From Candidatus Methanodesulfokora washburnensis (lineage in GTDB: Archaea > Korarchaeota > Korarchaeia > Korarchaeales > Korarchaeaceae), in contig NZ_RCOS01000160.1 in assembly GCF_003947435.1 (NCBI RefSeq), positions 1-35,330 on the forward strand: a stretch of DNA of 35,330 nucleotides. Direction: 5' to 3'. Below the pieces are notes generated by a model. That model was given only the letters and a program-made list of their open reading frames with translations. It was not told where the DNA came from and made no database searches. Every line of letters starts with the position of its first letter. Within the stretch, counting starts at the first letter, position 1. The translations under genes and the position numbers were made by a program. Of the stretch, positions 100-13,239 are shown one piece after another.

Positions 100-306
100 A
101 GTTGGCTGTCCATAATCTCGCGTGGCTAGGGAAGCTTAAAAATATCCAATGTATTCGTGTCAATGGAAATTCCATTTAATATATTTTATTAATTGATAGT
201 TAATGAAAAGCTACAAACAGCTCATTTCTGGAATTGTATCATGATTCTGACGCAAAAGCCAAGCTTGTCCTGTCTGATAGATTTTCGACATAAAAAGTTG
301 TGTTTA

Positions 307-729
307 TTAATAGTCCTTCCTCCTACTGATGATATCAACTGGCTCTACTCTCGGTATCTCCAAGTTGTTGAAGTCCCTGTCAAATGACACTATGGCCTCC
401 GCTCCAATGGAGAGAGCAACTGCATACTGTATAGCATCATCTATATCCAGTTTCTTCTCCTCGGTCAATTCCACTGCCCTAACCTCCTCTGCTATGGATG
501 TCTGATGTACAACTAAGCCTCTATATCCGGTCAAGCTCATGAGGAAGGCCTTCAGCTTCTCATGTCTTTTGAGGCTGTCCAAGAGCACCATTATGGAGTG
601 AATCGAGAAATCGGACACTGTTCCCGAGATTGCGCCATCTCTGAGCATTTCCAAGAAGCGCTTGCATTCATCCCTCCTCCTGCGGGAGAGCATGATCTCC
701 AGAAATATGTTCGTGTCAACCAGATACAT
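307..729 (-). CDS. vapC: VapC-like PIN-domain toxin (ribonuclease)
   Basis: A 140-aa PIN-domain protein, the usual VapC length. The family cleaves RNA (often tRNA or rRNA) using metal held by conserved acidic residues. Visible acidic positions are the N-terminal VDTN (Asp5), the central DIDDAIQYAVAL block and FDRDF near the C-terminus. It lies directly downstream of a small antitoxin-like gene and overlaps it by 14 nt, the normal VapBC arrangement, so translation is probably coupled. The reading frame is intact and the catalytic residues are present, so it should be active. RNA target unknown. Confidence 0.85.
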   Translation of the reverse strand: MYLVDTNIFLEIMLSRRRRDECKRFLEMLRDGAISGTVSDFSIHSIMVLLDSLKRHEKLKAFLMSLTGYRGLVVHQTSIAEEVRAVELTEEKKLDIDDAIQYAVALSIGAEAIVSFDRDFNNLEIPRVEPVDIISRRKDY

Positions 730-991
730 CTTCCAGCACCTTTGAGATCCAGATCTTCTTAAGCTTGTGCTGTAGCTCCACCGAATCTATTTCCAGATCC
801 GCAAGAATTCCGTCAATGGCCTCCACGGGATCCCCCTCGAACCTCAACTCCTCTCCCTCCACCCACGAGACCCATCTTGCAATTGCTTCCTCCACTGCTT
901 TTTGCAGAGAGCCCTTAGTATACCCAAATCTCCTCATCGCAAGCTCTCTAAATCTCCTCTCCAGCTCCTTACTTATGTTGGCTCTTATCAT
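716..991 (-). CDS. vapB: VapB-like antitoxin
   Basis: A 91-aa basic and acidic helical protein (starts MIRANISKELERRF) with an N-terminal segment resembling a ribbon-helix-helix DNA-binding fold and an acidic C-terminal half that would wrap the toxin. I chose the ATG at 991 rather than the in-frame start at 1012, because a TATA-like box (read on the minus strand as AGCTTTTATG, around 1017-1026) sits about 30 nt upstream of 991, which would give a leaderless mRNA. It overlaps the PIN toxin downstream. Family assignment rests on size, position and the N-terminal pattern. Confidence 0.75.
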   Translation of the reverse strand: MIRANISKELERRFRELAMRRFGYTKGSLQKAVEEAIARWVSWVEGEELRFEGDPVEAIDGILADLEIDSVELQHKLKKIWISKVLEDVSG

Positions 992-1018
992 GCTCTCAAG
1001 GACATAGAGCAATAAGGC

Positions 1019-1135
1019 ATAAAAGCTTTTTTACACAAAATTGAAACTTTTTATTAAGATCTTTCCTGTTAAAAATCTATTCGAAAGCTTTTTAAATTTC
1101 CAATTCCCCAATTTTGTGTAAAAAAAAGCTTTTAT
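1019..1135. repeat. long inverted repeat carrying divergent promoters
   Basis: The arm at 1019-1043 (25 nt) is the reverse complement of 1109-1135 except for two extra A in the right arm. Both arms contain TTTTGTGTAAAAAA followed by AGCTTTTAT. Read outward, each arm gives a TATA-like box: the left one about 30 nt before the vapB start (991), the right one about 27 nt before an ATG at 1158. The repeat is therefore a symmetric divergent promoter, and the shared TTTTGTGTAAAA part is a candidate operator for VapB. The sequence between the arms is AT-rich and non-coding. Confidence 0.7.
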
Positions 1136-1179
1136 CATCTCCTCTTCCTCTCCTCTTATGGAAGAGGAGATGATAAAAG
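1129..1179. repeat. perfect 20-bp inverted repeat (hairpin)
   Basis: Positions 1129-1148 are the exact reverse complement of 1160-1179, with an 11-nt loop at 1149-1159. The left arm overlaps the rightward TATA box, and an ATG at 1158-1160 starts at the loop edge, so a transcript starting near 1158 would lose the left arm. It may be an operator, a recombination scar or a transposable-element trace. Confidence 0.75.
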
Positions 1180-1182
1180 GAC

Positions 1183-1548
1183 TTGGGAAGGCTGAGGAAT
1201 GCCACTATTCTCGCCTTCCTTACAGTCCTATTGTTCCAGCTCCCTTATGTGTTCTTCTTTCCCTATCGTTCCTTGGAACGGCTTCCCACGAGCCCTTCCT
1301 TCATTGTCATCGTCATGATAACGATGGTTCTCATGATAATCGGCCTTATTTTGGGGATTGGATCATGGATATTCGAGATTCTCGGATGGTTTAGCATGTG
1401 CAGGGCGGGAGTGAGGAAGTTCTACTGTTTTACCAAGTACATGGTGCTACTTGGCCCGATAGTGGGATTCTTGCTTGCGATTGTTGGAGCAGGGGCGTTG
1501 GTCCTTGAAGCCATTGAAAAGGGGGTAATGCCAACGGAGGAGAGTTGA
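1183..1548 (+). CDS. small membrane protein, unknown function
   Basis: A 121-aa protein with three strongly hydrophobic segments (about residues 9-27, 39-70 and 87-111); the middle one is followed by IFEILGWFSMCRAG. The sequence is loosely like archaeal DUF996-type membrane proteins, but I cannot confirm this. The start used is TTG at 1183, since an in-frame stop lies at 1174-1176. The promoter in the inverted repeat points instead to the ATG at 1158, which is in another frame and reads MEEEMIKGLG. Skipping one G in GGG at 1185-1187 would join that N-terminus to this frame, so the gene may carry a one-base insertion. Its stop overlaps the next start (TGATG). Confidence 0.5.
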   Translation: MGRLRNATILAFLTVLLFQLPYVFFFPYRSLERLPTSPSFIVIVMITMVLMIIGLILGIGSWIFEILGWFSMCRAGVRKFYCFTKYMVLLGPIVGFLLAIVGAGALVLEAIEKGVMPTEES

Positions 1549-1832
1549 TGGCCCACAGGAACATAACAGATGAGGAGGTCTTCAGCGGAAGGCCATTCAC
1601 AGCAGAGGAGGCGCTTAAAGCAGGGCTAATAGATGAAATAGGGGCTCCAAGCGATGCAATAAACCTTGCCAGGAGGCTAGCAGGCCTTCCCGAGGATGCA
1701 CCAGTCCATGAGCTAAAACCCCCGAGGCCGAGCCTTCTTCAGCTGTTGCTTGAAGGTACCCTCATGAAGGAGCAGCCAGTGGTCCCATCGATCGAGATCC
1801 TCACGATGTGGCCACCTCCAGCCGGCCTTTGA
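1548..1832 (+). pseudogene. C-terminal fragment of an S49 (SppA-like) signal peptide peptidase
   Basis: A 94-aa ORF. Its first 50 residues (AHRNITDEEVFSGRPFTAEEA, then LKAGLIDEIGAPSDAINLAR) match the C-terminal part of S49 proteases, where G-R-x-[FY]-T-x-x-x-A-x-x-x-G-L-[IV]-D-x-x-G is diagnostic. Full-length family members are about 230-300 aa or more, and their catalytic Ser and Lys lie upstream of this block; both are missing here. The ATG at 1548 overlaps the stop of the membrane-protein gene and is preceded by GGAGGAG, so it could still be translated by coupling. It is either a decayed protease replaced at its 5' side by the membrane gene or a retained non-catalytic domain. Confidence 0.65.
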
Positions 1833-2261
1833 TTGCTGCTGTTAATGAAAGCCATAAACCACCTCCAAGAATGGATCTTCGAGCTCCTTCATGTGCTTAG
1901 TTAAATCCTTCCTCCATGGATGTTGCCTTTAATGTGGTAAAAGTGAAAAATGGTCGGAAAAGAAAAATTTATAAGCCAATGGTTACTTTATCATCTATGT
2001 TGGAAATGAAGAAAATATTATGTGGTAGAGATCTTCACTAATGCCCAACAAAATAAGGATTGAATTACCACTAGTAGCCGTTGTATGTGAATCTTGGTTT
2101 AAAGGATTATGTGGAACAGAAAGTAAGCAACTAGATAGCTTCGGTGCACTAAACTCGGAGATAAACAGATATAAAGATGGAGAAGAAGGCCAGGTGTCAT
2201 AGATGAGTAGGCGGATTCTGAGCATAGAATTTGTTCCAGTAATTTTAAGCTTTATTTTACT
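1833..2261. other. 429-nt stretch without a recognised gene
   Basis: A TATA-like sequence (AAATTTATAAG) lies at about 1967-1977. The only open frame of note on the plus strand is 2041-2202 (listed separately). A 76-codon minus-strand frame at 1995-2225 has no promoter or family signature and looks like chance. Confidence 0.5.
2041..2202 (+). CDS. possible small protein, unknown
   Basis: A 53-codon ATG frame starting MPNKIRIELPLVAVVCES, downstream of the TATA-like box near 1970 but about 65 nt from it. No Shine-Dalgarno sequence and no family resemblance. It may be a gene remnant. Confidence 0.2.
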   Translation: MPNKIRIELPLVAVVCESWFKGLCGTESKQLDSFGALNSEINRYKDGEEGQVS

Positions 2262-2273
2262 ATGGTGGTAAAA

Positions 2274-3446
2274 ATGAAAATAGTGGAGATGTCATCTAAA
2301 AGTATTATAAATAAAATGAAGAATGGCTTCTTCGCTATGCGATATCTACCATTTAGGCTAACAGCAAACGTTTATCGAGGTTGCACTCACGGTTGCATTT
2401 ATTGCTATGCAGCATGCAGCCACTACTACATGCGTTCAAGCCCAGCTCTGTTTTCAAAGGAGATCTATGTGAAGAAGAATGCAGCAGAATTGTTTGAGAA
2501 AGAGCTGACAAAGCATAAGGAGGCAAAAAGGAAAAGTGTAATTATAGTTGGTAACATTTCCGATAGCTATCAGCCAATAGAGATGAGATATAGATTGACC
2601 AGAAAGCTGCTTGAGATATGCTACAGGCAGGATTTTCCATGCTTCATAGAGACAAAATCGCCTTTAATCTTGGAGGATGTTGATATAATCGAGAAGCTGG
2701 CTGAAAAAGAGCTCATCGGAGTCGGCATGACGGTGACCTCCTATGACAATGAGCTCACAAAGCTTGTCGAGCCCTTTGTTCCGAGAAGTAAAATTGTGCG
2801 TTCCCAAATTCTCCAAAGGGAGAGAATTCTTACGCTGAAGAAGCTGTCAGAAATCGGAGTTGACACATACCTTCATATCACGCCATACTTTCCACATGTG
2901 ACCGATAACTATATAGATGAGATAATCGGGGATGCGGCAGAAGCAGGTGTGCACAGTGTTATAATGGCCCCTCTTGAAATTACCGGGTTTATCTGGAGTA
3001 AACTCAAAAGGGCGCTTGCGAAAAGCAGGAGATATTCATATCTAATACCTCTATATGAAAAAATTTATTTTGTCGATGGAAGGAAGCTCGGAGCCAGAAT
3101 TACCACATCTGAAATGCATCATTACATGCTGGAGAAAAAGGTATCAGAGCTATGCAAAAAATATGGAATAGGGTATTGGGCATTCACAAACCCTCAATTC
3201 AACACAGCAATGATATCAGGTGTCTATAAATGGCGTTATCCCATCCTTCTGGATTACTGGAAACTTGCACGGGAAAATGGAGAATTGACATTGAGAGAAG
3301 CTCTACAGTTTGCCTCCAGCTTTCCTGTGGATAGAGAGTATCTATCAGTGCTAAAAGAATACTTTCTGAACGGGAAGCTTTTCGAGGGTGTTTATGGCAT
3401 TAAAAAAGAAGCCAAGGATGGTGAGGTGGTATATGTTCCGGCATAA
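2274..3446 (+). CDS. SPL-family radical SAM protein
   Basis: A 390-aa protein of the SplB / COG1533-like radical SAM group. The [4Fe-4S]/SAM motif C-x3-C-x2-C is seen as RGCTHGCIYCYA at Cys37, Cys41 and Cys44, inside the NVYRGCTHGCIYCYA context typical of this group; VGNISDSYQPIE about 55 residues later is also typical. Spore photoproduct lyases repair UV-damaged DNA, but archaeal members mostly have unproven roles. I chose ATG 2274 over 2262 because GGTGGT lies just before it and a TATA-like box (CTTTATTTTAC, about 2250-2260) is at the right distance. It converges on the peptide array, ending about 220 nt from the last relic. A role in modifying the Cys-rich peptides is conceivable but unsupported; it is not co-transcribed with them. 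Confidence 0.85.
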   Translation: MKIVEMSSKSIINKMKNGFFAMRYLPFRLTANVYRGCTHGCIYCYAACSHYYMRSSPALFSKEIYVKKNAAELFEKELTKHKEAKRKSVIIVGNISDSYQPIEMRYRLTRKLLEICYRQDFPCFIETKSPLILEDVDIIEKLAEKELIGVGMTVTSYDNELTKLVEPFVPRSKIVRSQILQRERILTLKKLSEIGVDTYLHITPYFPHVTDNYIDEIIGDAAEAGVHSVIMAPLEITGFIWSKLKRALAKSRRYSYLIPLYEKIYFVDGRKLGARITTSEMHHYMLEKKVSELCKKYGIGYWAFTNPQFNTAMISGVYKWRYPILLDYWKLARENGELTLREALQFASSFPVDREYLSVLKEYFLNGKLFEGVYGIKKEAKDGEVVYVPA

Positions 3447-3669
3447 GCTTTCAGTTTCGATAAGTAACAATAGTATTGAGGCAGATACCGATCCTACTAG
3501 GGAGTGGATTGCCGATTTTATATCACTTTGTTGCTCCCATGATAAGGACTACTGTTGCTGCAGAAATCTCCAACTACTCTTTTAATGGTATCGACGAAAC
3601 CCCTGCTCATCTCCACCACACTCCTTTTAAATTTTGTCCCACGAGCTACAGACATGCCAGCAGTGAATA

Positions 3670-3768
3670 TTAGATACCGCATGGTAACGCAGGTACGCCA
3701 GCGCATGCGATCAAGACATCGTAAATTCATGATCACCAGCCACAAAGAGCAAAACAGATTGTTGAGTC
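3670..3768 (-). pseudogene. possible relic F of the Cys-rich peptide family
   Basis: Starting at the stop of the upstream membrane gene, the minus strand reads D-S-T-I-C-F-A-L-C-G-W, which matches the DDTACELVC start of peptide B with the same CxxxC spacing. After two stops (TGA, TGA) the frame continues as IYDVLIACAGVPALPCGI and ends in TAA. The position, right after a membrane gene, equals that of the better peptides. The similarity is short, so this is tentative. The remaining part of 3447-3669 shows nothing convincing. Confidence 0.3.
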
Positions 3769-4171
3769 ATGATGCAAACCTCGCTTCTTCATGAACTCTC
3801 TGATTCTTTGTTATAGCAAAATATAAAATTAAAATAATGATGACAGTTGCTGGGGCTATGGATAAGGAGATGAGGCTTATCCAATCTCCCGGAAGAAGAA
3901 GGGAGACGATAAGGACGGAAAAAGCAACCCAGATGATGAATCCAATGAGAACCTTCTTATCAACAATCCTCCTTAGGGATATAAGTGAGATGGAGGAGAC
4001 AAAGTTGGAAAAAAGGAAGGAGACATAAAGAGCGGAAGCAATGCTATGCTTGCGAATGTGAAGCAGAACGAAGAAGGAAAGGAAGATCAAGGTCGTAAAT
4101 CCCACAAGGAATCCAACTGCTGCCTTTCTATCCGTCTTAATTTTTGTCCACAATCCTGATAGCTCTGGCAT
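3767..4171 (-). CDS. M5: small four-TM membrane protein of the peptide array
   Basis: A 134-aa protein with four predicted membrane segments (about 17-37, 43-65, 73-93, 96-118) and a charged C-terminal tail. It resembles M3: both have a D-K-[RK]-V-L-x-G-x-I-I stretch before the third segment and similar length. It has its own upstream TATA-like box (AAGTATAAATAAAG, about 4197-4210), some 30 nt before the ATG. By position, one membrane gene per peptide, an immunity or export role is inferred. Its peptide partner appears to be only the relic at 3670-3768. Confidence 0.6.
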   Translation of the reverse strand: MPELSGLWTKIKTDRKAAVGFLVGFTTLIFLSFFVLLHIRKHSIASALYVSFLFSNFVSSISLISLRRIVDKKVLIGFIIWVAFSVLIVSLLLPGDWISLISLSIAPATVIIILILYFAITKNQRVHEEARFAS

Positions 4172-4218
4172 CGGCTCTCGCTCCCTATGCCCTCAAACAC
4201 TTTATTTATACTTTTCCC

Positions 4219-4347
4219 TTACTGTGACTCGCATACAAGATAGCAGAACACTGCGGCTACTATGGCGCAGATAGCTCCAGGTACGCCGCCAATAAAACCG
4301 GCCGGAATGCAGAATACTAGCCATGCAGAGCCACATCGCAAACCCAA
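4219..4347 (-). pseudogene. relic D of the Cys-rich peptide family
   Basis: The open frame reads RCGSAWLVFCIPAGFIGG, then VPGAICAIVAAVFCYLVCESQ and TAA. It aligns with the C-terminal core of peptides A and B (FCIP..., xxC-x3 blocks, VC-x-x-Q end). Just upstream in the same frame is MSNN followed by TGA, which lines up with the family's MSDD end of the leader, with the TGA where peptide A has Trp. The leader upstream of this is gone. A TTG at 4347 could start a 42-aa product, but without a leader it is most likely decayed. It follows M4 by 75 nt. Confidence 0.5.
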
Positions 4348-4422
4348 TCAGTTATTGCTCATTCTTTCATTTCACTGCTAATGAAATATAACAGTAATGA
4401 GTGTATCTTCTATAAGAGCTTC

Positions 4423-4911
4423 TCAGCGTAGCCATCTTTTGAGGATAACTTCAAAAAAGTTGAAGGTTCCATAGATGAGAAAAATAATAAACAATGAAAG
4501 AATGAGTGGTATGTATAATCGTATCTCAGGGAGAAGGTGTGCAAGAAGCATGATAAGACCTGCTCCAGCACATATAACAGCTATATATCCAGCTAATATC
4601 CCCTCGCTAAGGGCATCTGGGCCTACCTCCCTTTTTATATCGAGGGGAAGGAGAAAGAGAATGGGATAAGCGAGCAGAAGGAAGAATAGGAGCCCAGCAG
4701 CGGTCCCATAATGGGCGTGAAGGGCATAGCCAAACATGCCTAGAAGAGTTGCAAAAAATGAATCTCTGATGACGATCTCCCTCGCTGTGCATTCTCTCTT
4801 CGCCCCTTTTATTGATGTGCATTTAACAATCATTCTCCACATATGCTCTATCATTTTCATACTTTTCAAAAAAGGTGAAAGATATCTAACCATGTGCCTC
4901 CTTCTCTCCAT
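4423..4911 (-). CDS. M4: four-TM membrane protein of the peptide array
   Basis: A 162-aa protein: a basic N-terminal 45 residues, then four hydrophobic segments (about 51-66, 70-88, 103-125, 132-154) and a basic end (KRWLR). I recognise no family. A promoter box AAGTTTTTATT at 4935-4945 (minus strand) fits transcription starting close to the ATG at 4911; ATG 4893 is an alternative. It precedes the relic peptide D, repeating the membrane-then-peptide order seen in the other units, and an immunity-type role is inferred from that only. Confidence 0.6.
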   Translation of the reverse strand: MERRRHMVRYLSPFLKSMKMIEHMWRMIVKCTSIKGAKRECTAREIVIRDSFFATLLGMFGYALHAHYGTAAGLLFFLLLAYPILFLLPLDIKREVGPDALSEGILAGYIAVICAGAGLIMLLAHLLPEIRLYIPLILSLFIIFLIYGTFNFFEVILKRWLR

Positions 4912-4920
4912 CCCTACACC

Positions 4921-5250
4921 TCAAAGGCAGAGCGAATAAAAACTTAGTGTAGGTGATGAAAGCAATAAAAGCTTGCCAATGTAGTCGGATGGATAATCCT
5001 CAGAGACGCCTGGATACTCTTCAGCGTCACATTGAATCTTGCATATAATGGCAAAGATTATCTCACATACAATTTCTCCAATGCCCGAAGTTACCTCACC
5101 TACAATTATGCATAGTTCGACTGAAGGATAGAGTCAACAACGGAGCTCGCAAACCGTATCGTCGCTCATTATAGCCTTTGCATTCAGTATTGGTTTGTCA
5201 ATCCACTCAACCCCCTCGACTATCCCTGCTTCTCGATTCTCTTCTTCCAT
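4921..5250 (-). pseudogene. peptide E, family member interrupted by in-frame TGA
   Basis: From the ATG at 5250 (inside the end of M3) the frame reads a normal leader, EWIDKPILNAKAIMSDD, then TVCELRC and a TGA at 5134-5136. The same frame continues without another stop as LYPSVELCIIVGEVTSGIGE, then IVCEIIFAIICKIQCDAEEY, which is a good C-terminal core (VC-x7-C-x3-C) of this family. So the gene is complete apart from one stop codon in the middle of the core. The simplest reading is a recent nonsense mutation. The truncated 38-aa product would keep the leader and one CxxxC motif. The frame stays open to 4923, overlapping the promoter of M4, so the original end is not certain. Confidence 0.7.
4932..4948 (-). 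promoter_or_regulatory. promoter of M4
   Basis: Minus-strand CACTAAGTTTTTATTCGC, about 27 nt before the M4 ATG. The same AGTTTTTATT or TGTTTTTATT core lies before M1 and M2, so the units appear to share one promoter type. Confidence 0.55.
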
Positions 5251-5585
5251 AAGCGTGGGAATTTTATGAAGATCCAGCATGCAAAAATAAGAATGATAAA
5301 TTCAAGCAGAAAGGAGGCAAAATTTTTCATTATAAGCTCTTTGTGGAGGAATGTGAAGAAACATATTATTATAATAGCCAAAATAATCTGTCCTTTGAGC
5401 ACTCTTTTATCCCAGATGAAATCCGGATCTAAAGCAACAAGTATGGAGAGAAAGGAAAAACCCCAAAAAAGACCCAAAAAAAGAGAAGATAGAATAGTCT
5501 CCCTTGTTCGATAAAGGAAAAAGTTAAACACAAAGTAAGCCACTGCAAGAATGATATACAGCAGCGCTCTTGCCCTCTTTGACAT
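5220..5585 (-). CDS. M3: small four-TM membrane protein of the peptide array
   Basis: A 121-aa protein with four hydrophobic segments (about 7-28, 34-52, 64-85, 92-110) and a basic tail (WKKRIEKQG). The ATG at 5585 is preferred over GTG 5597 or ATG 5594, because a TATA-like box (ACTTTATTAAG, about 5607-5617) is then about 27 nt upstream. It resembles M5 (shared D-K-[RK]-V-L-x-G motif, same length). Its 3' end overlaps the start of peptide E by 31 nt, so the two were probably translationally coupled. The pairing suggests an immunity or transport role for the cognate peptide; no family match. Confidence 0.6.
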   Translation of the reverse strand: MSKRARALLYIILAVAYFVFNFFLYRTRETILSSLFLGLFWGFSFLSILVALDPDFIWDKRVLKGQIILAIIIICFFTFLHKELIMKNFASFLLEFIILIFACWIFIKFPRLWKKRIEKQG

Positions 5586-5650
5586 GCTGCACATCACTTT
5601 ATGCGTCTTAATAAAGTTTATGGATAGCTGCCTACATTTTTGAAGAGTTC

Positions 5651-5923
5651 TCAGTCGAATTGCATTGGGTCATACTCTTCCCATTCGGACGGTCCGTAGC
5701 ATACATCAGTGCAGATATTGTCGCAAACAACAGCTCCTATAACAGTCATGACAAGCCCGCAACCGATCACTCCCGGTCCAGTGGTTCCACATGCCAGTAG
5801 CGTGACGAAGAAGAAAGCTACGTTACAAACTACGGCACAAGCTGACGTGCAATTATCGTCGCTCATCAATGCAGAAGCATTCATTATAGGCTTATTTATC
5901 CACCTAATCTCCACATCTTTCAC
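5651..5923 (-). CDS. peptide C: leader plus eight-Cys core, halocin-C8-like
   Basis: A 90-aa peptide. Residues 8-23 are the shared leader (W-INKPIMNASALMSDD); the core from residue 24 has eight Cys (25, 29, 33, 45, 55, 67, 71, 75), with CTSACAVVC and CDNICTDVC at its ends, a Gly-rich hydrophobic middle, and an acidic tail (EWEEYDPMQFD) not found in A or B. Halocin C8 is likewise a small Cys-rich, Gly/Ala-rich peptide cut from a precursor; the resemblance is in pattern and not confirmed by alignment. The GTG start overlaps the stop of M2 by one base (TAGTG), so it is translated with M2. There is no Sec signal peptide. Expected role: an exported antimicrobial peptide; this is inference. Confidence 0.65.
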   Translation of the reverse strand: MKDVEIRWINKPIMNASALMSDDNCTSACAVVCNVAFFFVTLLACGTTGPGVIGCGLVMTVIGAVVCDNICTDVCYGPSEWEEYDPMQFD

Positions 5924-6735
5924 TATTCCCTTACAAAATGTGCAAGAAATGCCAGCATTGGGGCGGATATAAGAGCTCCAATTAGATAGCCTGTGAATGC
6001 CTCTCTGACAGCTCCATGTGTTAAAGCCACGATAAGGAGGAATGATAGGATAAATGGAGTTGTCGATGAGATGGAGAAGAATAGCCCCCTCCAGAACCTA
6101 GTTCTGCCCAGCTCAAACTGGATCATCCTTGATATCAGGGCCAGTAGGATAGCACAGAATATTATATATAATATCAATATATGGATATGCTTTGTATATA
6201 TTAAGGTTAGCTCCATATACCTTGGATTAAAAAGAGGAAAGAGCAACAAGTCTGAGAAAAGCACCAAGTTTGTGAAAAAGAAGAGCAAGATCCAAGTATA
6301 TTTCCATGATTTTGGTGCCCAATAACCGACCTTCCTCTGCATAGCCTCATCTGTCCCCCATTTCATGAGAAATCCAACAAGAATGCCTCCTGTAGTAAAA
6401 AAGAAAATAATAGTTGAAATGCAGAGAAGCTGAAGACTTTTATAATAGAAAGATATATAAGGGAGAAGGCCCAGGATCATTACAGAAAGGGGTATGATGA
6501 AAAGAAGAATACTTTTCCCGTCTCTCAAAGCAATGTAGCTAACATATGATATTGGAATTAATAATACAATACAAAGAATTATATATAATATTAGCTCATA
6601 TACATGTTCTGCATAAAACTCTATTATAGTTTTTCTACCCGGAAGCCAGTATGGGCAGAGTATTAAAATAACGATGAGAACAACATAGTAGATCCAGATC
6701 CTTCTCCACGAAGCAGATAATCCCATCAGTGTCAT
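5923..6735 (-). CDS. M2: eight-TM membrane protein with internal duplication
   Basis: A 270-aa protein with about eight membrane segments. The two halves repeat each other: S-W-R-R-I-W-I at 9-15 against S-W-K-Y-T-W-I at 143-149, and HVYELILYIILCIVLLIPIS at 44-63 against HIHILILYIIFCAILLALIS at 183-202. It is a paralogue of M1 (shared GYWAPKSWKY and REAFTGYLIGALISA). ATG 6735 is preceded by GGAGGT and by a promoter box. It is directly followed by peptide C. No known family recognised; immunity or export of peptide C is inferred from coupling. Confidence 0.7.
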   Translation of the reverse strand: MTLMGLSASWRRIWIYYVVLIVILILCPYWLPGRKTIIEFYAEHVYELILYIILCIVLLIPISYVSYIALRDGKSILLFIIPLSVMILGLLPYISFYYKSLQLLCISTIIFFFTTGGILVGFLMKWGTDEAMQRKVGYWAPKSWKYTWILLFFFTNLVLFSDLLLFPLFNPRYMELTLIYTKHIHILILYIIFCAILLALISRMIQFELGRTRFWRGLFFSISSTTPFILSFLLIVALTHGAVREAFTGYLIGALISAPMLAFLAHFVRE

Positions 6736-6762
6736 CAGCTTACCTCCTACTGCACTTCTCTT

Positions 6763-6777
6763 GAAAATAAAAACTTA
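6763..6777 (-). promoter_or_regulatory. promoter of M2-peptide C unit
   Basis: Minus-strand TAAGTTTTTATTTTC, 30-40 nt before ATG 6735, nearly the same as the boxes before M1 and M4. With it, GGAGGT lies 8 nt before the ATG. Confidence 0.5.
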
Positions 6778-6825
6778 TGTGCATTAAGTACCTAATGTAA
6801 AATAAAAATAGTAAGCGGTTGCTAG

Positions 6826-7068
6826 CTATTGACATTGCTGCTGGCAAACGACAACATGAAATATAATTTCGCAGATTAAATCACAAGCAAGGTGAGCAAG
6901 AGGTCCTCCTGCTAGTTCAGCAGGAACACAGATAGCAAAGCAAAATGAAAATCCTTCGAGAAGGCAGACAAGTTCACAAGCCGTATCGTCGCTCATCAAT
7001 GCAGAAGCATTCATTATAGGCTTATTTACCCACTTAATCCATCCCACATTCCCAACTATTCCTGACAA
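6826..7068 (-). CDS. peptide B: leader plus four CxxxC core, halocin-C8-like
   Basis: An 80-aa peptide. Residues 9-28 are the leader (GWIKWVNKPIMNASALMSDD). The core has eight Cys at 31, 35, 43, 47, 62, 66, 75 and 79, that is four CxxxC pairs with spacing C3C7C3C14C3C8C3C, exactly as in the end of the 351-aa precursor A. The start is a TTG at 7068, 5 nt after the M1 stop; the frame is open further upstream into M1 but without a better start. No signal peptide. CxxxC pairs spaced along amphipathic helices suggest a disulfide-stapled helical bundle. Antimicrobial activity is inferred from likeness to halocin C8 and the array context. Confidence 0.65.
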   Translation of the reverse strand: MSGIVGNVGWIKWVNKPIMNASALMSDDTACELVCLLEGFSFCFAICVPAELAGGPLAHLACDLICEIIFHVVVCQQQCQ

Positions 7069-7073
7069 GAGTA

Positions 7074-7916
7074 TTATGGCTGATTTTCCCTCCTTATCAG
7101 GAAAACATGATACAGGGGCACAGCCATTATAGCAGATATAAGAGCTCCAATTAGATAGCCTGTGAATGCTTCTCTGACCTCCCCATGAGTTAAAGCTGAA
7201 AGAAAAGAGAAAGGAGGGACAAAAGAGATGAAAAATAGGGAGAAGACGAGGAGCTCAGCCCAGAACTTGGTTCTGTTGATTATGGACTGAAGGATCTTCG
7301 ATACTGGAACTAGTACAATGGCACAAAATATTATATATGATATTAAAATATGAGGGAGCCTTGTGAATATCAGGATGACCTCCTGAAATACTGGGTTAAA
7401 ATAGGCGAGGAGAAATTGAGAGAACAGCACCGTGTTACTAAGAAGGAAGAAAATGGCCCACAGATATTTCCACGACTTCGGTGCCCAGAAGCCAACTCTC
7501 CTGCGCACAACCTCATCCGCAGCCCCCTTCATCATGAACATTAGAAAAGCTGATCCTAGGATGCCAAAGAAAAGGATAACTAGGACGGAAAGGATCCATT
7601 TCTCGGCATAGGAGAAGAGAATATAGGGAAAGAAGCCCAAGATTAGTGCAAAGAAGGGCATGAGGAACCCGAACAATTTAAGAGGAAATTTCCTGCTTTT
7701 AATAGCAATATACATAACATGTGATATTGGAATTAATAATACAATACAAAGAACTATATATAATATTAGCTCATGGAGATGCTTTGTATAGCTCATGATC
7801 AACAGGCGTGCCCTGTGGCTCGGAAGTAATGCTGGAGAAAACATTAAGAGAACGGTGAGTATGGAAAGGTAGATCCAGATCCTCCTCCATGAAGCAAATA
7901 ATTTCATCAATTTCAT
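7074..7916 (-). CDS. M1: eight-TM membrane protein with internal duplication
   Basis: A 280-aa polytopic protein, paralogue of M2 over its whole length (SWRRIWI start, GFWAPKSWKY middle, LTHGEVREAFTGYLIGALIS end), with the same two-fold internal repeat. ATG 7916 is chosen rather than the frame's first start at 7976: it aligns with the M2 N-terminus, and a promoter box (7942-7955) lies between A and this ATG. DNA identity with M2 is very high around the first repeat (compare 6540-6595 and 7728-7783), which points to recent duplication or gene conversion. It is followed 5 nt later by peptide B. Confidence 0.7.
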   Translation of the reverse strand: MKLMKLFASWRRIWIYLSILTVLLMFSPALLPSHRARLLIMSYTKHLHELILYIVLCIVLLIPISHVMYIAIKSRKFPLKLFGFLMPFFALILGFFPYILFSYAEKWILSVLVILFFGILGSAFLMFMMKGAADEVVRRRVGFWAPKSWKYLWAIFFLLSNTVLFSQFLLAYFNPVFQEVILIFTRLPHILISYIIFCAIVLVPVSKILQSIINRTKFWAELLVFSLFFISFVPPFSFLSALTHGEVREAFTGYLIGALISAIMAVPLYHVFLIRRENQP

Positions 7917-7941
7917 ATAAACGATCCCTGTACTCCTTTCA

Positions 7942-7955
7942 AGAATAAAAACATT
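7942..7955 (-). promoter_or_regulatory. promoter of M1-peptide B unit
   Basis: Minus-strand CAATGTTTTTATTC, centred about 30 nt before ATG 7916. It starts a second transcript just after the stop of precursor A. Confidence 0.5.
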
Positions 7956-7968
7956 GTGACAGGGATCT

Positions 7969-9024
7969 TTAGCCAAACCAGTGGCATTGCTGAGAACAAA
8001 CTATAAGTTCAAATAGAATCTCGCAGACTATATGACAGGCTATAGCCGCAGCTCCTCCTGATAACACATCAAAGGGAATGCAGAAAGCTGTGCAAACTGA
8101 GAATCCTTCGAGAAGGCATACAATCTCACAAATCCAATCGTCGCTTATTAAAGCCTTTGCATTCAATATTGGTTTGTCGATCCACTTAATCCATCCTATA
8201 TTCCCGATTATGTTTGCTAAATGTCTCAGCTCCCTCGCCATTACTGAATATGCATGAGGAAGCTGCTTTTTAACTGTCTCATTCCCTTTCTCATACATCT
8301 TTGAAAGGTTCTCAGCCAAATTCCCAAGAGTTCTGTACATCTGCGATAGAGTCACTCCACTAAGGTTTACTAGCTCCAGAGAGGTGACCTTCTTGTTCAC
8401 AGGCGTATACCTGACTGTCGTGAACGCAGATACATAGGCATCCTTGCTTGGAAGGAGGATTGTGGATACCGACAGGTTTCCCTCAGGGGATCTGAATGAG
8501 TAGTCGATCTGGTAGTACTTTGCGGAGAAGTTGCCGGAGAACCTCACAAGGCTTATATTAAGGCTTCTTGAGATTGGAGGCTTTTCTGGGACAGTAGCTT
8601 CTGAGGACATTATATCCTTTGGAATTGGACTTCTTGGAATAGATCTTGGAATAGGATAGCTTACAAGCAGTGTCCTCTCCACATCCACCCTGTACTCACT
8701 TCCATTCAGGTATATCCTCATCTCAGCTTTTCTTATCAGATCTCCTCTTATGTCGACAAGGGCCTCGTTTACCCTGCCCTCCCTCTCATATCTCACTGAA
8801 AGTATCTGATGATCCCTCTCCTTCTTTATCACTGTGACATTGTGATGGCACTTATCCAGAGAACAGGAGACAATGGGTTTTAGGGGCTTTATATCAAAGG
8901 AATCCCCTTTTACAGCAATGCTGTGCATTGTCTGAATTTCTGGCTGTGCCATGAGGACATTTGGAGCTAGGAGGAGAAGGATCATCATAGATGAGAGGGC
9001 GGCTGCAAGCAACCTACCCCTCAT
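7969..9024 (-). CDS. A: secreted precursor with C-terminal Cys-rich (halocin-C8-like) domain
   Basis: A 351-aa protein. Residues 1-26 form a Sec signal peptide (MRGRLLAAALSSMMILLLLAP then NVLMA-QP). Residues 27-270 are a soluble region with several N-glycosylation sequons (NVT, NGS, NIS, NFS, NLS, NET) and no family I recognise. Residues 277-296 repeat the leader (GWIKWIDKPILNAKALISDD), and 299-347 carry eight Cys in the same C3C7C3C14C3C8C3C spacing as peptide B. Halocin C8 is also made as the C-terminal part of a larger secreted precursor whose N-terminal part gives immunity, and the layout here matches. A TATA-like AATATTTAG at about 9052-9060 and GGAAGGG before the ATG support the start. 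It heads the array and may provide the exported, immunity-bearing member. Confidence 0.7.
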   Translation of the reverse strand: MRGRLLAAALSSMMILLLLAPNVLMAQPEIQTMHSIAVKGDSFDIKPLKPIVSCSLDKCHHNVTVIKKERDHQILSVRYEREGRVNEALVDIRGDLIRKAEMRIYLNGSEYRVDVERTLLVSYPIPRSIPRSPIPKDIMSSEATVPEKPPISRSLNISLVRFSGNFSAKYYQIDYSFRSPEGNLSVSTILLPSKDAYVSAFTTVRYTPVNKKVTSLELVNLSGVTLSQMYRTLGNLAENLSKMYEKGNETVKKQLPHAYSVMARELRHLANIIGNIGWIKWIDKPILNAKALISDDWICEIVCLLEGFSVCTAFCIPFDVLSGGAAAIACHIVCEILFELIVCSQQCHWFG

Positions 9025-9139
9025 GCGAACACCCTTCCTGTACTCAACTTGCTAAATATTTTTTTTTTCGATAGAAAAATTGAAAAATTAATAACTTTAA
9101 CAAGCATTCCAGCAGATAGTTTTCGATCGAGAAAAGCCG

Positions 9140-12100
9140 TCAATTAGCAGGAATTTTGGCTGGACTTGATTTCTCCATCTCCTTTATGAACAATCCCAGC
9201 TTATATATGGAGGAGACCCTGTCCTGCAGGTATTTTCTCACCTTCTCATCCAAGAAGTTTGTGAAGCTTCTCCATCTCCCGGATCCCCTCATCTTCAACA
9301 TCCTGTCGCTTGACCCGATCTCCGATATCACATCCTTCAGGTGGACCTTCTCATCCCCCAGCATTCTCAGTATGTCCTGAGGGGTTGGATCCCCAAAAAT
9401 CTCCTTCACCCTTTCCCTCAGCTCCTTCACCCTTCCGGATCCCTTCAGCCCCAGCATCATGTAGTAAAGGCTGGTGCTGACGGGCCTAATCTCCTCTATA
9501 ATTGAATCAAAATCATAGGCCAATATTGTGAAGCCCGAATCCAGCGATCTCTGTATCTCCCTTATCACTTCCTCATCCGACTCAACAAGCTCAACGAGCT
9601 CTCTTACAAACCTTCCAGATATCACTTTCTCCCCATCGAAAACGGACACGTAAAGGATCTTTACATCCTCGAATTCTATTAAAGAGGTGTCTATTGAGAG
9701 CAGTTTTAGTGCCTTAGAAGGGGCTGGAATGGAGATTTTTATCCCAGATATCTCGATTGGTATCCTTCTCTCAGCCATTATGTAGTCAACAGCCCTTACT
9801 GCATACCTCTTTGCCAGATCCCAGTTTGCTCCAGCAGATATGAACTCAAAATGTGCCTGATCATCTATCTGCATGAGCATTATCTCGCTTATCTCATCAG
9901 GTATAAAGCTCTGTATTGAATCCCTCACCTTCTGCCAGTCCATTTTCTCTAGGAGGCCTGCACATCTGGGCTCATGTATGCTCATCAGCTTTTTGTTGCC
10001 CGTGTTTGCAACACTGTACTCCAAGGAGCTGAGATCTATCCCAAACACCTGTCTTAGCACAATACAGAGGACAGCAAGGCCTATCCTGAGCCATGTCATG
10101 TTCTCCGCTGGGTCAAGCTCTATGGAATATCCGTAGGTGTAGTCTGAATACCTTCCTCCAGTTTCAGCAACTATCTCAAGGCTTCTTCTATCTCTTATGA
10201 AGTAAGTTCTGTCCCCCGCTACAATTGGCCTGAGAGGACCGTTCAAAACCCAGTATGCTCTGTTTGGAACCTTTCTGTAGAGACCGAATCCGGATACAGG
10301 TGGGTCAACCACGCATATAACCTCTGAGTGAAGTCTCCCCCTTCTGTAATCCTCTAGGACACTGGGGCTCTCCCCCCAGGAGAGCTTAACCTTCTCATAC
10401 TCCTCCAGAGTGTAGCTTAGCTCCTCCTCCACCCTTCTCAGATCTGTTATCGGCACAAGCTCGACCCCTGTCACATATCTTCCCCTTCTCCTCAGGCTCT
10501 TCACTATCCCATCGGAGCTGTGATCTATGCATCCTATCTGAAATCTCTCAACTAGATCGCAGTAGCCTATATCTGGAAGGAAGCTGATCCCATCCTCCGC
10601 TATTAGCAGCCTCTTTATTCCGTAAGGAGGTGCAAACTCGTAGAAATTGAGATTTCTCCAGACCCTCTTTCCCAGTTTTGTCAGATCAGTTCCCCTCACT
10701 AGTTCGAGATCCTTCAGCAGGCTGAGCTCCTCTTGGCTCATCTTCTCCCTGAAAAAGGGGGACATGAACTTGTACATTGCCTCAAACAGAGTTGAATATC
10801 TGTTCTCCTGATTAACAAGGGCTATCTCAAGCCTCATATTGCTCCACTTCTCGAGGACATCAACTCCCCTGAGGAGGAGCTCCCTATCCCATGATCCAAT
10901 GGGAAATATCACGGTCTCAGTGTACTCTATCCATTTTCTTCTCCCCTTTCTTCCCTCCCTCTGTTTGAACTCCCTGACTGAGGGAGGAAGGCCAAGATGG
11001 ACTATCCTTATCACATCCCCTATGTCTATTCCCTGAGCAAGAGTTCTGGGGCTTATCAGTATTCTGACGATTCCTTCCTTTGCAAGCCTTTCTATCTCAG
11101 CCCTCTTCTCCTTGTCCACTAGGTGATGATGTGTTGCAACTCTGTGCGATATCTCGGGGTGCTCCGTTAACATCCTTCTGTACAGCTCCTCAGCAGATCT
11201 TATGCTCCTTGTGAAAACTATTGTGACTCCATCATCCTCCGCATACCTGCTTATCACCTCAACAGGGTCCACATATGCCTCTGGCAGCTCTATTCCCAGA
11301 TATCTTGCTATCTCTTTTATAGAGTAATACTTTATTTTAAATTTCTCAAAATCATCTATGGATTCAGCTATATCCCTTCCAGCTGCCCTTAATATCTCCT
11401 CCTTATGCAGTTTTACCCTCTCCCACGCACTTCTTAGATCCTTCCCGATGACAACATAAACCCTGTTTTCGGGCCTGAAAGGCCTTCCCCTTATTATCTC
11501 AGTCTCTTTTCCGTTTATCTGAGTGAGAATTCCAGCCATCTCCTCGGGATTCCCGAGAGTTGCTGTTAGAATTGCTATTGAGAAGTTCTTGGGGGAAAGA
11601 AGCTTTAAAAGCCTGATCATTGAGACCAGAAGGGCGATGCACCTTGGATCGTAGAAGTCGAACTCATCCAGAACTAGGAGATCCATCCTCTCAGCGAATC
11701 CATAGAGAATTTTAGGCCCTCCTGAAACCCATCTTTTCATATCCGTCATCAGGAAAGCAGGATTTGTTATCAGGATATCCGAGGATGATACTCTCTTCAT
11801 CTCCCTTCTCCTCATGGAGTCCATTGCCTCAGCTTTCAGACCAATAGCCTCTGAGTAATCCTTTAACCTAGATATCTGGTCGTTTGCCAGGGCTAAAGTT
11901 GGGTAGACCACCATCGTCCTCTTTCCGTCCTTTGAGTAGAGGAACCATGCCTCCGTCTTTCCACTTCCGGATCCGCTTATCAATATCACATTCTTCCCAG
12001 ATTTGAGGGCTTTCACGGTGCGGAGCTGGTGACTGTAAAGCTTTTCATTGGCTAAATAGCCCCTTTTTGTCCTTGATATCTCAGGAAAAATGTCTGAAAA

Positions 12101-12190
12101 AGTTAAGTTCTCCTCCTCAGGCTTATCCGCTTTCTGTACATGTTTATAGAAGTCGTAGCTGAGATCCTTTAGAAGTCTCTCTGTGTCCAT
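9140..12190 (-). CDS. large DExH/D-box superfamily 2 helicase
   Basis: A 1016-aa SF2 helicase. Motifs in order: Q-like region SHQLRTVKAL, Walker A SGSGSGKT (about 72-79), DEFD in place of DEAD/DEAH (about 175-178), TATL (about 209), then the second RecA fold with IVFTRS, SPRTLAQGIDIG (motif V) and QREGRKGRRK (motif VI). The 500-residue C-terminal part has no domain I recognise and lacks an obvious zinc cluster. Its plan resembles Lhr/Hrq1/YprA-like archaeal DNA helicases. ATG 12190 is chosen over 12229 because AAGGAGT lies about 9 nt before it, with a TATA-like ATATAAAT near 12247-12256. It is 115 nt upstream of A on the same strand, but no functional link to the array is evident. Confidence 0.85.
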   Translation of the reverse strand: MDTERLLKDLSYDFYKHVQKADKPEEENLTFSDIFPEISRTKRGYLANEKLYSHQLRTVKALKSGKNVILISGSGSGKTEAWFLYSKDGKRTMVVYPTLALANDQISRLKDYSEAIGLKAEAMDSMRRREMKRVSSSDILITNPAFLMTDMKRWVSGGPKILYGFAERMDLLVLDEFDFYDPRCIALLVSMIRLLKLLSPKNFSIAILTATLGNPEEMAGILTQINGKETEIIRGRPFRPENRVYVVIGKDLRSAWERVKLHKEEILRAAGRDIAESIDDFEKFKIKYYSIKEIARYLGIELPEAYVDPVEVISRYAEDDGVTIVFTRSIRSAEELYRRMLTEHPEISHRVATHHHLVDKEKRAEIERLAKEGIVRILISPRTLAQGIDIGDVIRIVHLGLPPSVREFKQREGRKGRRKWIEYTETVIFPIGSWDRELLLRGVDVLEKWSNMRLEIALVNQENRYSTLFEAMYKFMSPFFREKMSQEELSLLKDLELVRGTDLTKLGKRVWRNLNFYEFAPPYGIKRLLIAEDGISFLPDIGYCDLVERFQIGCIDHSSDGIVKSLRRRGRYVTGVELVPITDLRRVEEELSYTLEEYEKVKLSWGESPSVLEDYRRGRLHSEVICVVDPPVSGFGLYRKVPNRAYWVLNGPLRPIVAGDRTYFIRDRRSLEIVAETGGRYSDYTYGYSIELDPAENMTWLRIGLAVLCIVLRQVFGIDLSSLEYSVANTGNKKLMSIHEPRCAGLLEKMDWQKVRDSIQSFIPDEISEIMLMQIDDQAHFEFISAGANWDLAKRYAVRAVDYIMAERRIPIEISGIKISIPAPSKALKLLSIDTSLIEFEDVKILYVSVFDGEKVISGRFVRELVELVESDEEVIREIQRSLDSGFTILAYDFDSIIEEIRPVSTSLYYMMLGLKGSGRVKELRERVKEIFGDPTPQDILRMLGDEKVHLKDVISEIGSSDRMLKMRGSGRWRSFTNFLDEKVRKYLQDRVSSIYKLGLFIKEMEKSSPAKIPAN

Positions 12191-12229
12191 TTTGCGATTA
12201 CTCCTTATGGGAGTTAAATAAGGTTTCAC

Positions 12230-12449
12230 ACAGAATTTATTGTTTCATTATTTATATCTTTGTGCATAGCCCCCATTCCATAGGTCTTATTAACCTGCGG
12301 GCTATGCTTATGGGCTCGGAACATCCGAACTATGAATTTCAGAAGAGGTTTGTACTTAAACTTTTTCCATTCACCACAGAGCTAAAGCTCTGGATTTCTG
12401 GGTGTCCATTTTTATAAAACGTGTTCTCTTATTAAAAATTTCTTCATTT
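12230..12449. other. structured non-coding interval
   Basis: No gene. It has a perfect 9-bp inverted repeat GCATAGCCC (12264-12272) / GGGCTATGC (12299-12307) with AGGT/ACCT pairing inside the loop, a 4-bp hairpin CGGA-ACA-TCCG near 12327-12337, and a tight hairpin CAGAGCT-AA-AGCTCTG at 12377-12392. On the minus strand a TATA-like GTTTTATAAAAATGG (12406-12420) sits about 25 nt before the last hairpin. An untranslated RNA on the minus strand, upstream of the helicase, is possible; a remnant of an IS200/IS605-type end is another option. Confidence 0.4.
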
Positions 12450-13097
12450 TCACTGTTTTCCCATGCTCTCTACTTTCAGAGGAGTCAGATCCCTGTCCCA
12501 CCTTAAAAGCCATATCCCATTGTCTTTAGCGGCCTCCACAGCTTCAGGAACAGCATAATCAGTATATATAACCTTTATAACTCTATCTCTGAGTAGATCC
12601 GGTCTTCTCTTCCTTAGAAGCTCAATTTTGTCGATCAACTCCTTAATTAGGTTCTTCCCGAGCCTGACAGTAGCTTCACCTATAACGCATAGATCTTTAT
12701 TTGCCCCGTATATGTTTATCTCCATTGAGTCGACGAAAACCCTGTCTAACTCCATATCAATGTTCAGATCCTGTTTTATCCTGTGCTTTATCACGCTCCT
12801 GGCCTCATCCTCAACCGATAATGTGAGCCTCTCCAAAGTGGAGGACATCCTGTTTATGCTGGCATGAATCCCCTTTACCTCCTCCCACAGCTTATTCTGG
12901 CCTTCTCTGAGAGATTTCACCTCCTCCCACAGCTTATTCTGGTTCTCCCAAAGCTTTGTCATGTTCTCCTCAAGGCTGTCAAGCCTCTTCAACATCTCAG
13001 AAATTCCCAGGTAGCCTGCAACTGCATATCTGAACTCGAGATCCCTCTCAAGAAGGTCGAGCATCTCCTTCCTCAGCCTGCTGGAAGCCCTAACCAT
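12450..13097 (-). CDS. coiled-coil, PD-(D/E)XK nuclease-like protein (DUF3782-type)
   Basis: A 215-aa protein. Residues 1-35 are helical (YAVAGYLGISEMLKRLD is typical of this archaeal family). Residues 40-85 are a coiled coil made of repeated N-K-L-W-E-E-V-K-x-[LI] units. The C-terminal half resembles a nuclease fold with DLCVIGEATVRLG, where active members usually have E-x-K; here it is E-A-T, so catalysis is doubtful. The ATG at 13097 lies about 25 nt after a TATA-like TTTTTATATG (near 13117-13127). Such proteins are common in thermophilic archaea; their job is unknown. Family call is from pattern only. Confidence 0.65.
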   Translation of the reverse strand: MVRASSRLRKEMLDLLERDLEFRYAVAGYLGISEMLKRLDSLEENMTKLWENQNKLWEEVKSLREGQNKLWEEVKGIHASINRMSSTLERLTLSVEDEARSVIKHRIKQDLNIDMELDRVFVDSMEINIYGANKDLCVIGEATVRLGKNLIKELIDKIELLRKRRPDLLRDRVIKVIYTDYAVPEAVEAAKDNGIWLLRWDRDLTPLKVESMGKQ

Positions 13098-13239
13098 CAC
13101 CTAATGGACACTTTATCATATAAAAACTTAAGGTATAGCTTTAGGTTCCAGCAGTTTTTCTTTTTTAATTCAGAATATCCTAAATATTAGTTAAAAACTC
13201 TTATTGAACAAAAACTTTTATTTAATCGAGTAAAGGTTC

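What the first reader, a model, noticed from the sequence alone, without database searches (positions are those of the whole stretch)
3670..9024. An array of Cys-rich peptide genes, each paired with a membrane protein (candidate archaeocin system)
On one strand, A and then five membrane genes (M1-M5) each followed by a peptide: B, C, E, D, F. A, B, C and E share a leader ending in SDD, followed by a Cys-rich core. A and B have eight Cys in identical spacing (C3C7C3C14C3C8C3C). A carries a signal peptide and a long N-terminal region, as the halocin C8 precursor does. Seen: the repeats, leader, Cys pattern and gene order. Known: halocin C8 is a Cys-rich peptide cut from a larger precursor that also gives immunity. 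Inferred: antimicrobial function, and immunity or export by the M proteins.
Basis: partly seen in the sequence, partly recalled or inferred. Interest (0 to 1): 0.93.

Follow-up and report, generated by a model that had tools for sequence, protein, structure and literature searches.

The report
Archaeal peptide-toxin cassette array
A heat-loving archaeon carries one secreted carrier gene for a probable peptide toxin, followed by a row of spare toxin cores, each with its own likely protective membrane protein, which suggests that archaea swap toxin heads much as some bacteria do.

Summary
The array is real but partly misread. The genome is a Candidatus Methanodesulfokora (Korarchaeota). Only A is a complete precursor: signal-like N terminus, about 250-residue carrier, SDD leader, Cys-rich core. 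Three full-length paralogues lie elsewhere; all four are followed by a membrane gene. B, C and E are leader+core pieces with no signal peptide and no detected Shine-Dalgarno of 5 nt or more. E has an in-frame TGA, D is a frameshifted remnant, F is unsupported; M1-M5 are all open. B and C leaders match at 47 of 48 bases and the match ends at SDD, yet B's core groups with A: the leader is a recombination border. A 27-nt element occurs three times in the genome, each before a full-length precursor. Five of seven intact cores have exactly mirror-symmetric Cys spacing (A and B miss by one); AlphaFold2 predicts a helical hairpin turning at the mirror centre. In an unnamed second genus, carriers ending like A's bear different cores; 29 of 31 units have a downstream membrane gene, and four loci hold truncated carrier+core+membrane cassettes. 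Best reading: a polymorphic-toxin-like archaeocin with displaced core/immunity cassettes, remotely linked to halocin C8-type precursors. Toxicity and immunity are inferred.

The parts
9061..9087 (-). 27-nt upstream element TTTTTCAATTTTTCTATCGAAAAAAAA (promoter/operator candidate)
   Evidence: 3 matches in the 2.94-Mb own genome at up to 3 mismatches (all three exact), each 33-36 nt before a full-length precursor start (A, C124, C149); 0 in G001 and G002; 0 for the pattern read backwards; C32 lacks it; one match only in the window, so none before B, C, E
7969..9024 (-). A: full-length precursor (hydrophobic signal-like N terminus, carrier domain, leader, 8-Cys core), 351 aa
   Evidence: 48-49% identical to three other full-length paralogues in the genome
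8137..8184 (-). leader W..SDD of A
7972..8136 (-). core of A, Cys 3-7-3-14-3-8-3
7074..7916 (-). M1: about 8-TM protein with internal duplication; putative immunity protein of A
   Evidence: 50% identical to M2; c32X (L011:292-756) aligns to both halves
6826..7068 (-). B: detached leader+core (TTG frame), no signal peptide, no SD of 5 nt or more
   Evidence: core groups with A, leader with C
6985..7032 (-). leader of B, 47 of 48 nt identical to C's leader
5923..6735 (-). M2: about 8-TM protein, SD GGAGGT 6 nt before ATG; putative immunity protein of B
5651..5923 (-). C: detached leader+core; GTG overlaps M2 stop (TAGTG)
   Evidence: Cys 3-3-11-9-11-3-3
5855..5902 (-). leader of C
5220..5585 (-). 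M3: 4-TM protein; putative immunity protein of C
5158..5205 (-). leader of E (A-like, 91% DNA identity over 45 nt)
4921..5280 (-). E: broken leader+core, in-frame TGA at 5134-5136
4423..4911 (-). M4: TM protein (162 aa), SD GAGGTG 5 nt before ATG; related to the partner of the C32 precursor
   Evidence: 42.5% over 80 aa, E 7.5e-14 to c32M
4219..4347 (-). D: core remnant without in-frame leader
   Evidence: 0 of 1000 shuffles reach its score with the E or G002 core; leader trace in another frame
3767..4171 (-). M5: 4-TM protein; putative immunity protein of the D cassette
115..9139 (.). stretch with no counterpart at the same place in G002, where the flanks are about 480 nt apart
   Evidence: window 1-114 and 9168-12228 match G002 C21 at 6945-7058 and 3405-6463

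Best explanation
A carrier-plus-cassette archaeocin locus. A is made from its own promoter, exported through its signal peptide and cut near the SDD at the leader's end, releasing a 55-residue anionic, very hydrophobic core. The core folds as two antiparallel helices held by nested disulphides and probably inserts into rival archaeal membranes. The membrane protein encoded just after each core protects the producer from that core. New core+immunity cassettes enter by recombination in the short leader. Displaced cassettes stay downstream as leader+core+membrane gene, lose carrier and signal peptide, and decay, while the membrane (immunity) genes stay open, giving retained protection and a stock of spare cores. 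Shown: gene anatomy, leader/core mosaicism, broken distal cores beside open membrane genes, precursor-only upstream element, and detached cassettes in a second archaeal genus. Inferred: export, cleavage, disulphide pairing, toxicity, immunity, order of displacement.
For: Four full-length paralogues in the genome, with conserved carrier and diverged core, each followed by a TM gene. B-C leader 47/48 nt identical with identity ending at SDD; B groups with C in the leader (13:0 sites) but with A in the core (14:52), Fisher p 7.6e-8; A-E leader 91% over 45 nt. No start in the B, C or E frames has an SD of 5 nt or more at 2-12 nt spacing, whereas M2, M3, M4, M5, c32M, c124M and c149M do (M1 does not). 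Decay grows with distance: A, B and C open, E nonsense, D frameshifted. The 27-nt element lies only before full-length precursors, 3 of 4 of them. Cys spacings are exactly mirror-symmetric in 5 of 7 intact cores and off by one in A and B; the AF2 hairpin (helices 28-54 and 56-79 of B; block pLDDT 80-89 from residue 31) turns at the mirror centre. In unnamed genus g15, 25 of 61 genomes carry the carrier. Among 29 units there with a TM partner, partners are similar in 42 of 84 pairs with similar cores but in 1 of 322 pairs with different cores, while carriers are similar in 406 of 406 (E 1e-4). Orphan carrier-stub+core+TM cassettes in four loci of three genomes, one with 235 nt identical to the full carrier just upstream.
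Against: No toxicity or immunity data. The leader is short (48 nt), so gene conversion without cassette exchange could give the mosaic. C's GTG overlaps M2's stop and could be translated by coupling. A's own SD is weak too (GGTG), as is that of M1, so lack of SD alone does not prove silence. In the Korarchaeal set, M and core co-vary visibly only for A/B with M1/M2: M4 is closest to c32M, yet the E and C32 cores are only 21% identical. In g15, 42 of 84 core-similar pairs have dissimilar partners, part of it because shared Cys inflate core similarity. In G135 and G440 the detached cassette has no full carrier beside it. The carrier link to g15 rests on about 100 columns at hhalign probability 52-79%. 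The AF2 core model used 3 sequences; the full-length model was poor (mean pLDDT 46.7). The E stop and D frameshift come from a metagenome assembly (5.47% contamination). The C32 precursor lacks the 27-nt element.
Confidence: 0.6

Rival explanations
1. Multi-peptide archaeocin: A, B, C (and others) are all expressed as separate peptides, B and C by translational coupling to the membrane gene before them, which exports or protects against them.
For: C's GTG overlaps the M2 stop (TAGTG); B's TTG is 5 nt after M1's stop; B and C frames are open with all Cys kept.
Against: No signal-like N terminus in B, C or E; no SD of 5 nt or more in their frames; E and D broken; 4 of 4 full-length precursors are followed by a TM gene.
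Confidence: 0.17
2. Secreted hairpins are not toxins but signals or surface structural peptides, and the membrane proteins are their receptors or anchors.
For: No toxicity data; cores are anionic, -3 to -10, not cationic; partner specificity fits receptor-ligand pairs as well as toxin-immunity pairs.
Against: Orphan core/partner arrays are described for CDI toxins (Poole et al. 2011, PMC3150448, passages read); some g15 carriers bear recognised halocin-C8 domains, e.g. P0001 41.9 bits.
Confidence: 0.15
3. Neutral debris: tandem duplication of a core+membrane unit behind A, now decaying, with no role for the downstream cassettes.
For: E and D are broken; part of the M1/M2 and B/C similarity is consistent with plain tandem duplication.
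Against: Five of five membrane genes remain open while two cores are lost; cores of different Cys architecture behind near-identical leaders need exchange or conversion, not duplication alone.
Confidence: 0.08

Closest known systems
Halocin C8 / halocin_C8_dom (TIGR04449) archaeocins
   Same: Signal peptide + long N-terminal region + Cys-rich C-terminal core. Review PMC11509114 (passages read) gives ProC8 as 283 aa, exported by Tat, yielding HalI and a 76-aa halocin. Carrier end related by profile to carriers of genus g15, some with TIGR04449 cores.
   Different: Cores score below the cut-off (8.5-19.8 vs 24 bits, or no hit); mirror-symmetric Cys spacing not seen in three of four TIGR04449 controls; several paralogues share one carrier type, with a membrane gene after each core and detached cassettes.
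Orphan cdiA-CT/cdiI modules of contact-dependent growth inhibition and Rhs systems (Poole et al. 2011, PMC3150448, passages read)
   Same: Full-length carrier followed by orphan toxin-end/immunity pairs; short conserved tag (VENN there, SDD leader here) after which identity falls off abruptly; the majority of orphan toxin ends lack initiation signals while immunity genes can be expressed; some orphans are broken.
   Different: Small Cys-rich peptide in an archaeon; no CdiA/Rhs-type domain found in the array proteins by family search; putative immunity proteins are in the membrane; no sequence relationship claimed.
Glycocins and plant alpha-hairpinins (recalled, no call)
   Same: Helical hairpins with nested disulphides and roughly palindromic Cys spacing.
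   Different: Here 3-5 possible nested pairs and very hydrophobic helices; no glycosyltransferase was looked for; no structural match found (Foldseek, 0 hits at E <= 0.001).
VARTIG modules of Thermococcales (PMC8416519, passages read)
   Same: Variable arrays headed by a long protein, with downstream membrane proteins, proposed as a polymorphic-toxin analogue.
   Different: Immunoglobulin domains there; none reported here by Pfam, where the variable part is a Cys-rich core.

Membership tests
Halocin C8-like domain (NCBIfam TIGR04449) | Score at or above the curated cut-off of 24 bits | tested here: not met
   A 9.3, B 13.7, C 8.5; C32 11.2, G002 core 19.8, C124 and C149 no hit
Halocin C8-like domain (NCBIfam TIGR04449) | Cys-rich C-terminal domain behind a long N-terminal region with a signal peptide | tested here: met
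   4 of 4 full-length precursors; signal peptide judged from hydropathy (A) and alignment, no dedicated predictor
Halocin C8-like domain (NCBIfam TIGR04449) | N-terminal region homologous to that of TIGR04449 proteins | tested here: inconclusive
   hhalign E 1.6e-5, prob. 79%; E 1.5e-4, prob. 52%, against best of 100 column shuffles E 0.017; covers about 100 C-terminal carrier columns; comparison chosen after seeing 'ARELRHL' in both
Halocin C8-like domain (NCBIfam TIGR04449) | N-terminal fragment (HalI) confers immunity | not testable with these tools
   needs expression
Polymorphic toxin / CDI-type orphan arrays | Full-length carrier with orphan toxin-end/immunity modules bounded by a conserved tag | tested here: met
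   for the arrangement; that the parts are toxin and immunity is inferred
Polymorphic toxin / CDI-type orphan arrays | Orphan toxin ends lack initiation signals, immunity genes keep them | tested here: inconclusive
   holds for B, C, E against M2-M5, but M1 and A have weak SDs too, and C may be coupled
Polymorphic toxin / CDI-type orphan arrays | Known toxin domain or CdiA/Rhs-type delivery protein | tested here: not met
   None of the ten array frames passes a Pfam or NCBIfam cut-off; eight of them (E and D not given) have no PADLOC hit at E <= 0.01; so it works like one and is not filed as a member
Nested-disulphide helical hairpin peptides | Two antiparallel helices with disulphides pairing i with n+1-i | tested here: inconclusive
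   Mirror-symmetric spacing, AF2 hairpin; no coordinates for Cys distances, no experiment

The most novel reading that the evidence does not exclude
Archaea run a true polymorphic-peptide-toxin system: one secreted carrier, interchangeable disulphide-zippered hairpin cores exchanged at a short leader that acts as the recombination tag, and an array of displaced core/immunity cassettes kept as a memory of immunity and a reserve of weapons, present in Korarchaeota and also visible in a second archaeal genus.
Probability: 0.4. Interest if true: 0.85.

Novelty: new variant of a known kind. Interest (0 to 1): 0.72.

Why it matters
Archaeal peptide antimicrobials are known from few examples (recalled; PMC10105419, passages, names halocins and sulfolobicins). 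A carrier with swappable cores and cassette-encoded membrane immunity would explain how they diversify, give a way to find core/immunity pairs whose core is too diverged for existing models (the window cores and the g15 cores in L180, L182 and L183 fail TIGR04449), and offer a compact, possibly heat-stable disulphide-zippered scaffold. The mirror-symmetric Cys pattern makes a testable structural prediction from sequence alone.

Tried and rejected
Halocin C8 membership by score: tried, not met. Relatives outside the genus: A1 profile in 61 genomes, matches in 2, both this genus; leader+core profile in 394 genomes, 8 places in G000 and G002 at E <= 2.8e-18 and 11 further genomes at E 0.0097-0.0992, of which I read by eye the frames with 5 or more Cys in six loci (L113, L114, L117, L118, L119, L122) and saw no leader or matching core; the other five loci were not read. 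Genome-contig scan with A1 gave nothing; viral contigs with A1, M1 and the g15 carrier gave nothing; plasmids and phages with the g15 carrier and plasmids with A gave nothing. Foldseek of the B hairpin: 4 hits at E <= 10, none at E <= 0.001. AF2 of full-length A: poor. TGA in E as a recoded codon: set aside without a test, because the TGA adds a residue to a spacing that is 7 in A, B, C124, C32 and G002. F as a sixth peptide: not supported. Radical SAM at 2262-3446 as a maturase: no evidence beyond proximity; it is convergent and scores below NCBIfam cut-offs. First pairing test was faulty because the conserved linker was left in the core; repeated with trimmed cores (at E 1e-3 the counts are 42 of 94 and 1 of 312). 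One hhalign run used a wrong option and was repeated. In one search, three of 30 g15 loci with short carrier frames proved frameshifted (L152, L153, L178) and three lie at contig ends (L155, L174, L177); they are not counted as orphans. L165 has a short carrier frame whose cause I did not settle, and L160 gave no carrier. Of 43 g15 matches, 30 came with loci; three more were fetched. Prior publication: the rows listed by searches (6-20 rows each of the held library) and the passages showed no report of this locus or of cassette arrays for halocin-C8-type peptides; the key survey (Makarova et al. 2019, mBio) is not held and may describe part of the second-genus loci.
Full report
WHAT IS THERE. 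On the minus strand from 9024 down to 3767 lie A, M1, B, M2, C, M3, E, M4, D, M5. A is 351 aa with a hydrophobic, signal-like N terminus. Its C-terminal 80 residues recur in B (58% identical over 79) and C (33% over 76). E carries the leader and the start of a core but has TGA at 5134-5136. D is a core remnant without an in-frame leader. F could not be supported. The 56-nt repeat family is real.

WHOSE GENOME. The HemL gene of the window is 88% identical to 'Candidatus Methanodesulfokora sp. isolate KUA_Bin04'; the next listed hits are 60% or less. The genome is 2.94 Mb in 179 contigs, 98.24% complete, 5.47% contaminated. In the same-genus genome G002 the genes flanking the array are about 480 nt apart, against about 9 kb here, so the array lies in a variable region.

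FOUR CARRIERS. A profile search of 61 related genomes found seven matches in the own genome, one in G002 and none in the other 59 (with B alone agrees). Four are full-length: A and proteins on C124, C149 and C32, 48-49% identical to A. Each is followed by a membrane gene. Those partners fall into a group linked at E 7.5e-14 to 0.011 (M4, c32M, c124M, c149M; M3 and M5 only weakly, E about 0.004-0.006) and an internally duplicated group (M1, M2, c32X). Under the downstream pairing the two closest cores (A, B) have the two closest partners (M1, M2). Other pairs do not co-vary visibly: M4 resembles c32M, but the E and C32 cores are only 21% identical.

LEADER AS RECOMBINATION BORDER. The 48-nt leader W..SDD of B is identical to C's at 47 sites, and identity breaks off one base after SDD. 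B's core and its upstream flank resemble A instead. At sites where B agrees with only one of C and A, the counts are 13:0 in the leader and 14:52 in the core (Fisher p 7.6e-8). A and E share the leader (91% over 45 nt), less so the core (41% aa). Identity that ends at a short tag is what Poole et al. (PMC3150448, passages read) describe for VENN-bounded orphan cdiA-CT modules, the majority of which lack initiation signals while their immunity genes can be expressed.

ORPHANS VERSUS MEMBRANE GENES. No start in the B, C or E frame has a Shine-Dalgarno match of 5 nt or more at 2-12 nt; M2, M3, M4, M5 and the three lone partners do, M1 does not. A itself has only GGTG at 5 nt. C's GTG overlaps M2's stop, so coupling cannot be excluded. 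A 27-nt element occurs three times in the genome, before A, C124 and C149, with no further match at 3 mismatches and none for the pattern read backwards; C32 lacks it, and G002's core lies at a contig end, so its upstream region is not seen. Decay increases with distance from A (B and C open, E nonsense, D frameshifted), while 5 of 5 membrane genes are open.

CORE SHAPE. Cys spacings are mirror-symmetric: C124 and C32 3-7-3-11-3-7-3; C149 3-3-7-3-10-3-7-3-3; C 3-3-11-9-11-3-3; G002 3-7-14-7-3; A and B are off by one (3-7-3-14-3-8-3). The broken cores: E 3-8-14-7-3 with the stop counted, D 7-13-7-3. Orderings at least as symmetric: C124 3/105, C32 3/105, C149 4/252, C 3/105, G002 2/30, A and B 6/210 each; these cores are homologous, so the values are not independent. 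Of four halocin_C8_dom controls, three are not symmetric and one is near-symmetric (fraction 0.0096). AlphaFold2 on B with A and C rows gives helices 28-54 and 56-79 (10-residue block pLDDT 80-89 from residue 31), turning at residue 55, the centre of B's Cys pattern; the leader is low-confidence. Intact cores carry net charge -3 to -10 and GRAVY 0.47-1.29. Nested pairing (i with n+1-i) is my inference.

SECOND GENUS. halocin_C8_dom was found in 6 of 394 genomes at E <= 0.001. In one genus (g15, unnamed; I suspect Thermococcus from recall, untested) the carriers end in ARELRHL/AYELRHL like A. Profile comparison with A1 gives E 1.6e-5 (2 sequences) and 1.5e-4 (21 carriers), against a best of E 0.017 in 100 column shuffles. 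25 of 61 genomes of g15 hold this carrier. Among 31 distinct carrier-core units, 29 have a TM frame (60 aa or more) starting within 350 nt downstream; TM frames are similar in 42 of 84 core-similar pairs and 1 of 322 core-different pairs, while all 406 carrier pairs are similar. Pairs are not independent. Detached cassettes occur in G273 (two loci), G135 and G440. L183 (G273) has a full carrier, a TM gene, then a 193-aa frame that begins, after 13 unrelated residues, with 235 nt identical to the carrier upstream, then a different core and a TM gene. L182 (G273) has a full carrier, a TM gene and a frame-broken stub with another core and a TM gene. In L180 (G135) and L181 (G440) the stub overlaps or follows the end of an upstream TM gene, as in the window, but no full carrier was matched on the stretch. 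One 20-Cys core (L182; also L174) begins 3-3-7-3-8-3-7-3-3, nearly the C149 pattern.

VERDICT. The best-supported mechanism is a polymorphic-toxin-like archaeocin locus with displaced core/immunity cassettes. It works like CDI orphan arrays and is remotely linked to halocin-C8-type precursors, but is not filed as a member of either. Function is inferred throughout.

Noticed in passing
L011:292-756: c32X, a stand-alone single-unit relative of M1/M2 with no core seen beside it on the stretch read; may be an orphan immunity gene.
   Followed up: partly
   Followed up: no
window 2262-3446: Radical SAM protein (PA0069/Rv2578c-like, below NCBIfam cut-offs) convergent with the array; an 86%-identical fragment with a stop lies on contig C95.
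   Followed up: partly
L144:1-1148 and L144:10288-11177: Contig C156 of the same assembly is 94% and 91% identical to window 11110-12262 and 12271-13160 with about 9 kb of other sequence between them: a second strain or a duplication in the assembly.
   Followed up: partly
L012:6054-6245 and L009:2752-3888: In G002 a core lies next to the ThiI-like gene (name by eye) that also neighbours the C124 precursor, but on its other side; possible hotspot.
   Followed up: partly
L152, L153, L178: Carriers of genus g15 that appear frameshifted within the N-terminal part.
   Followed up: partly
window 307-729: PIN-domain gene (Pfam E 1.6e-13) at the edge of the variable region; G002 has a different PIN-like frame (by eye) in the corresponding gap.
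   Followed up: no
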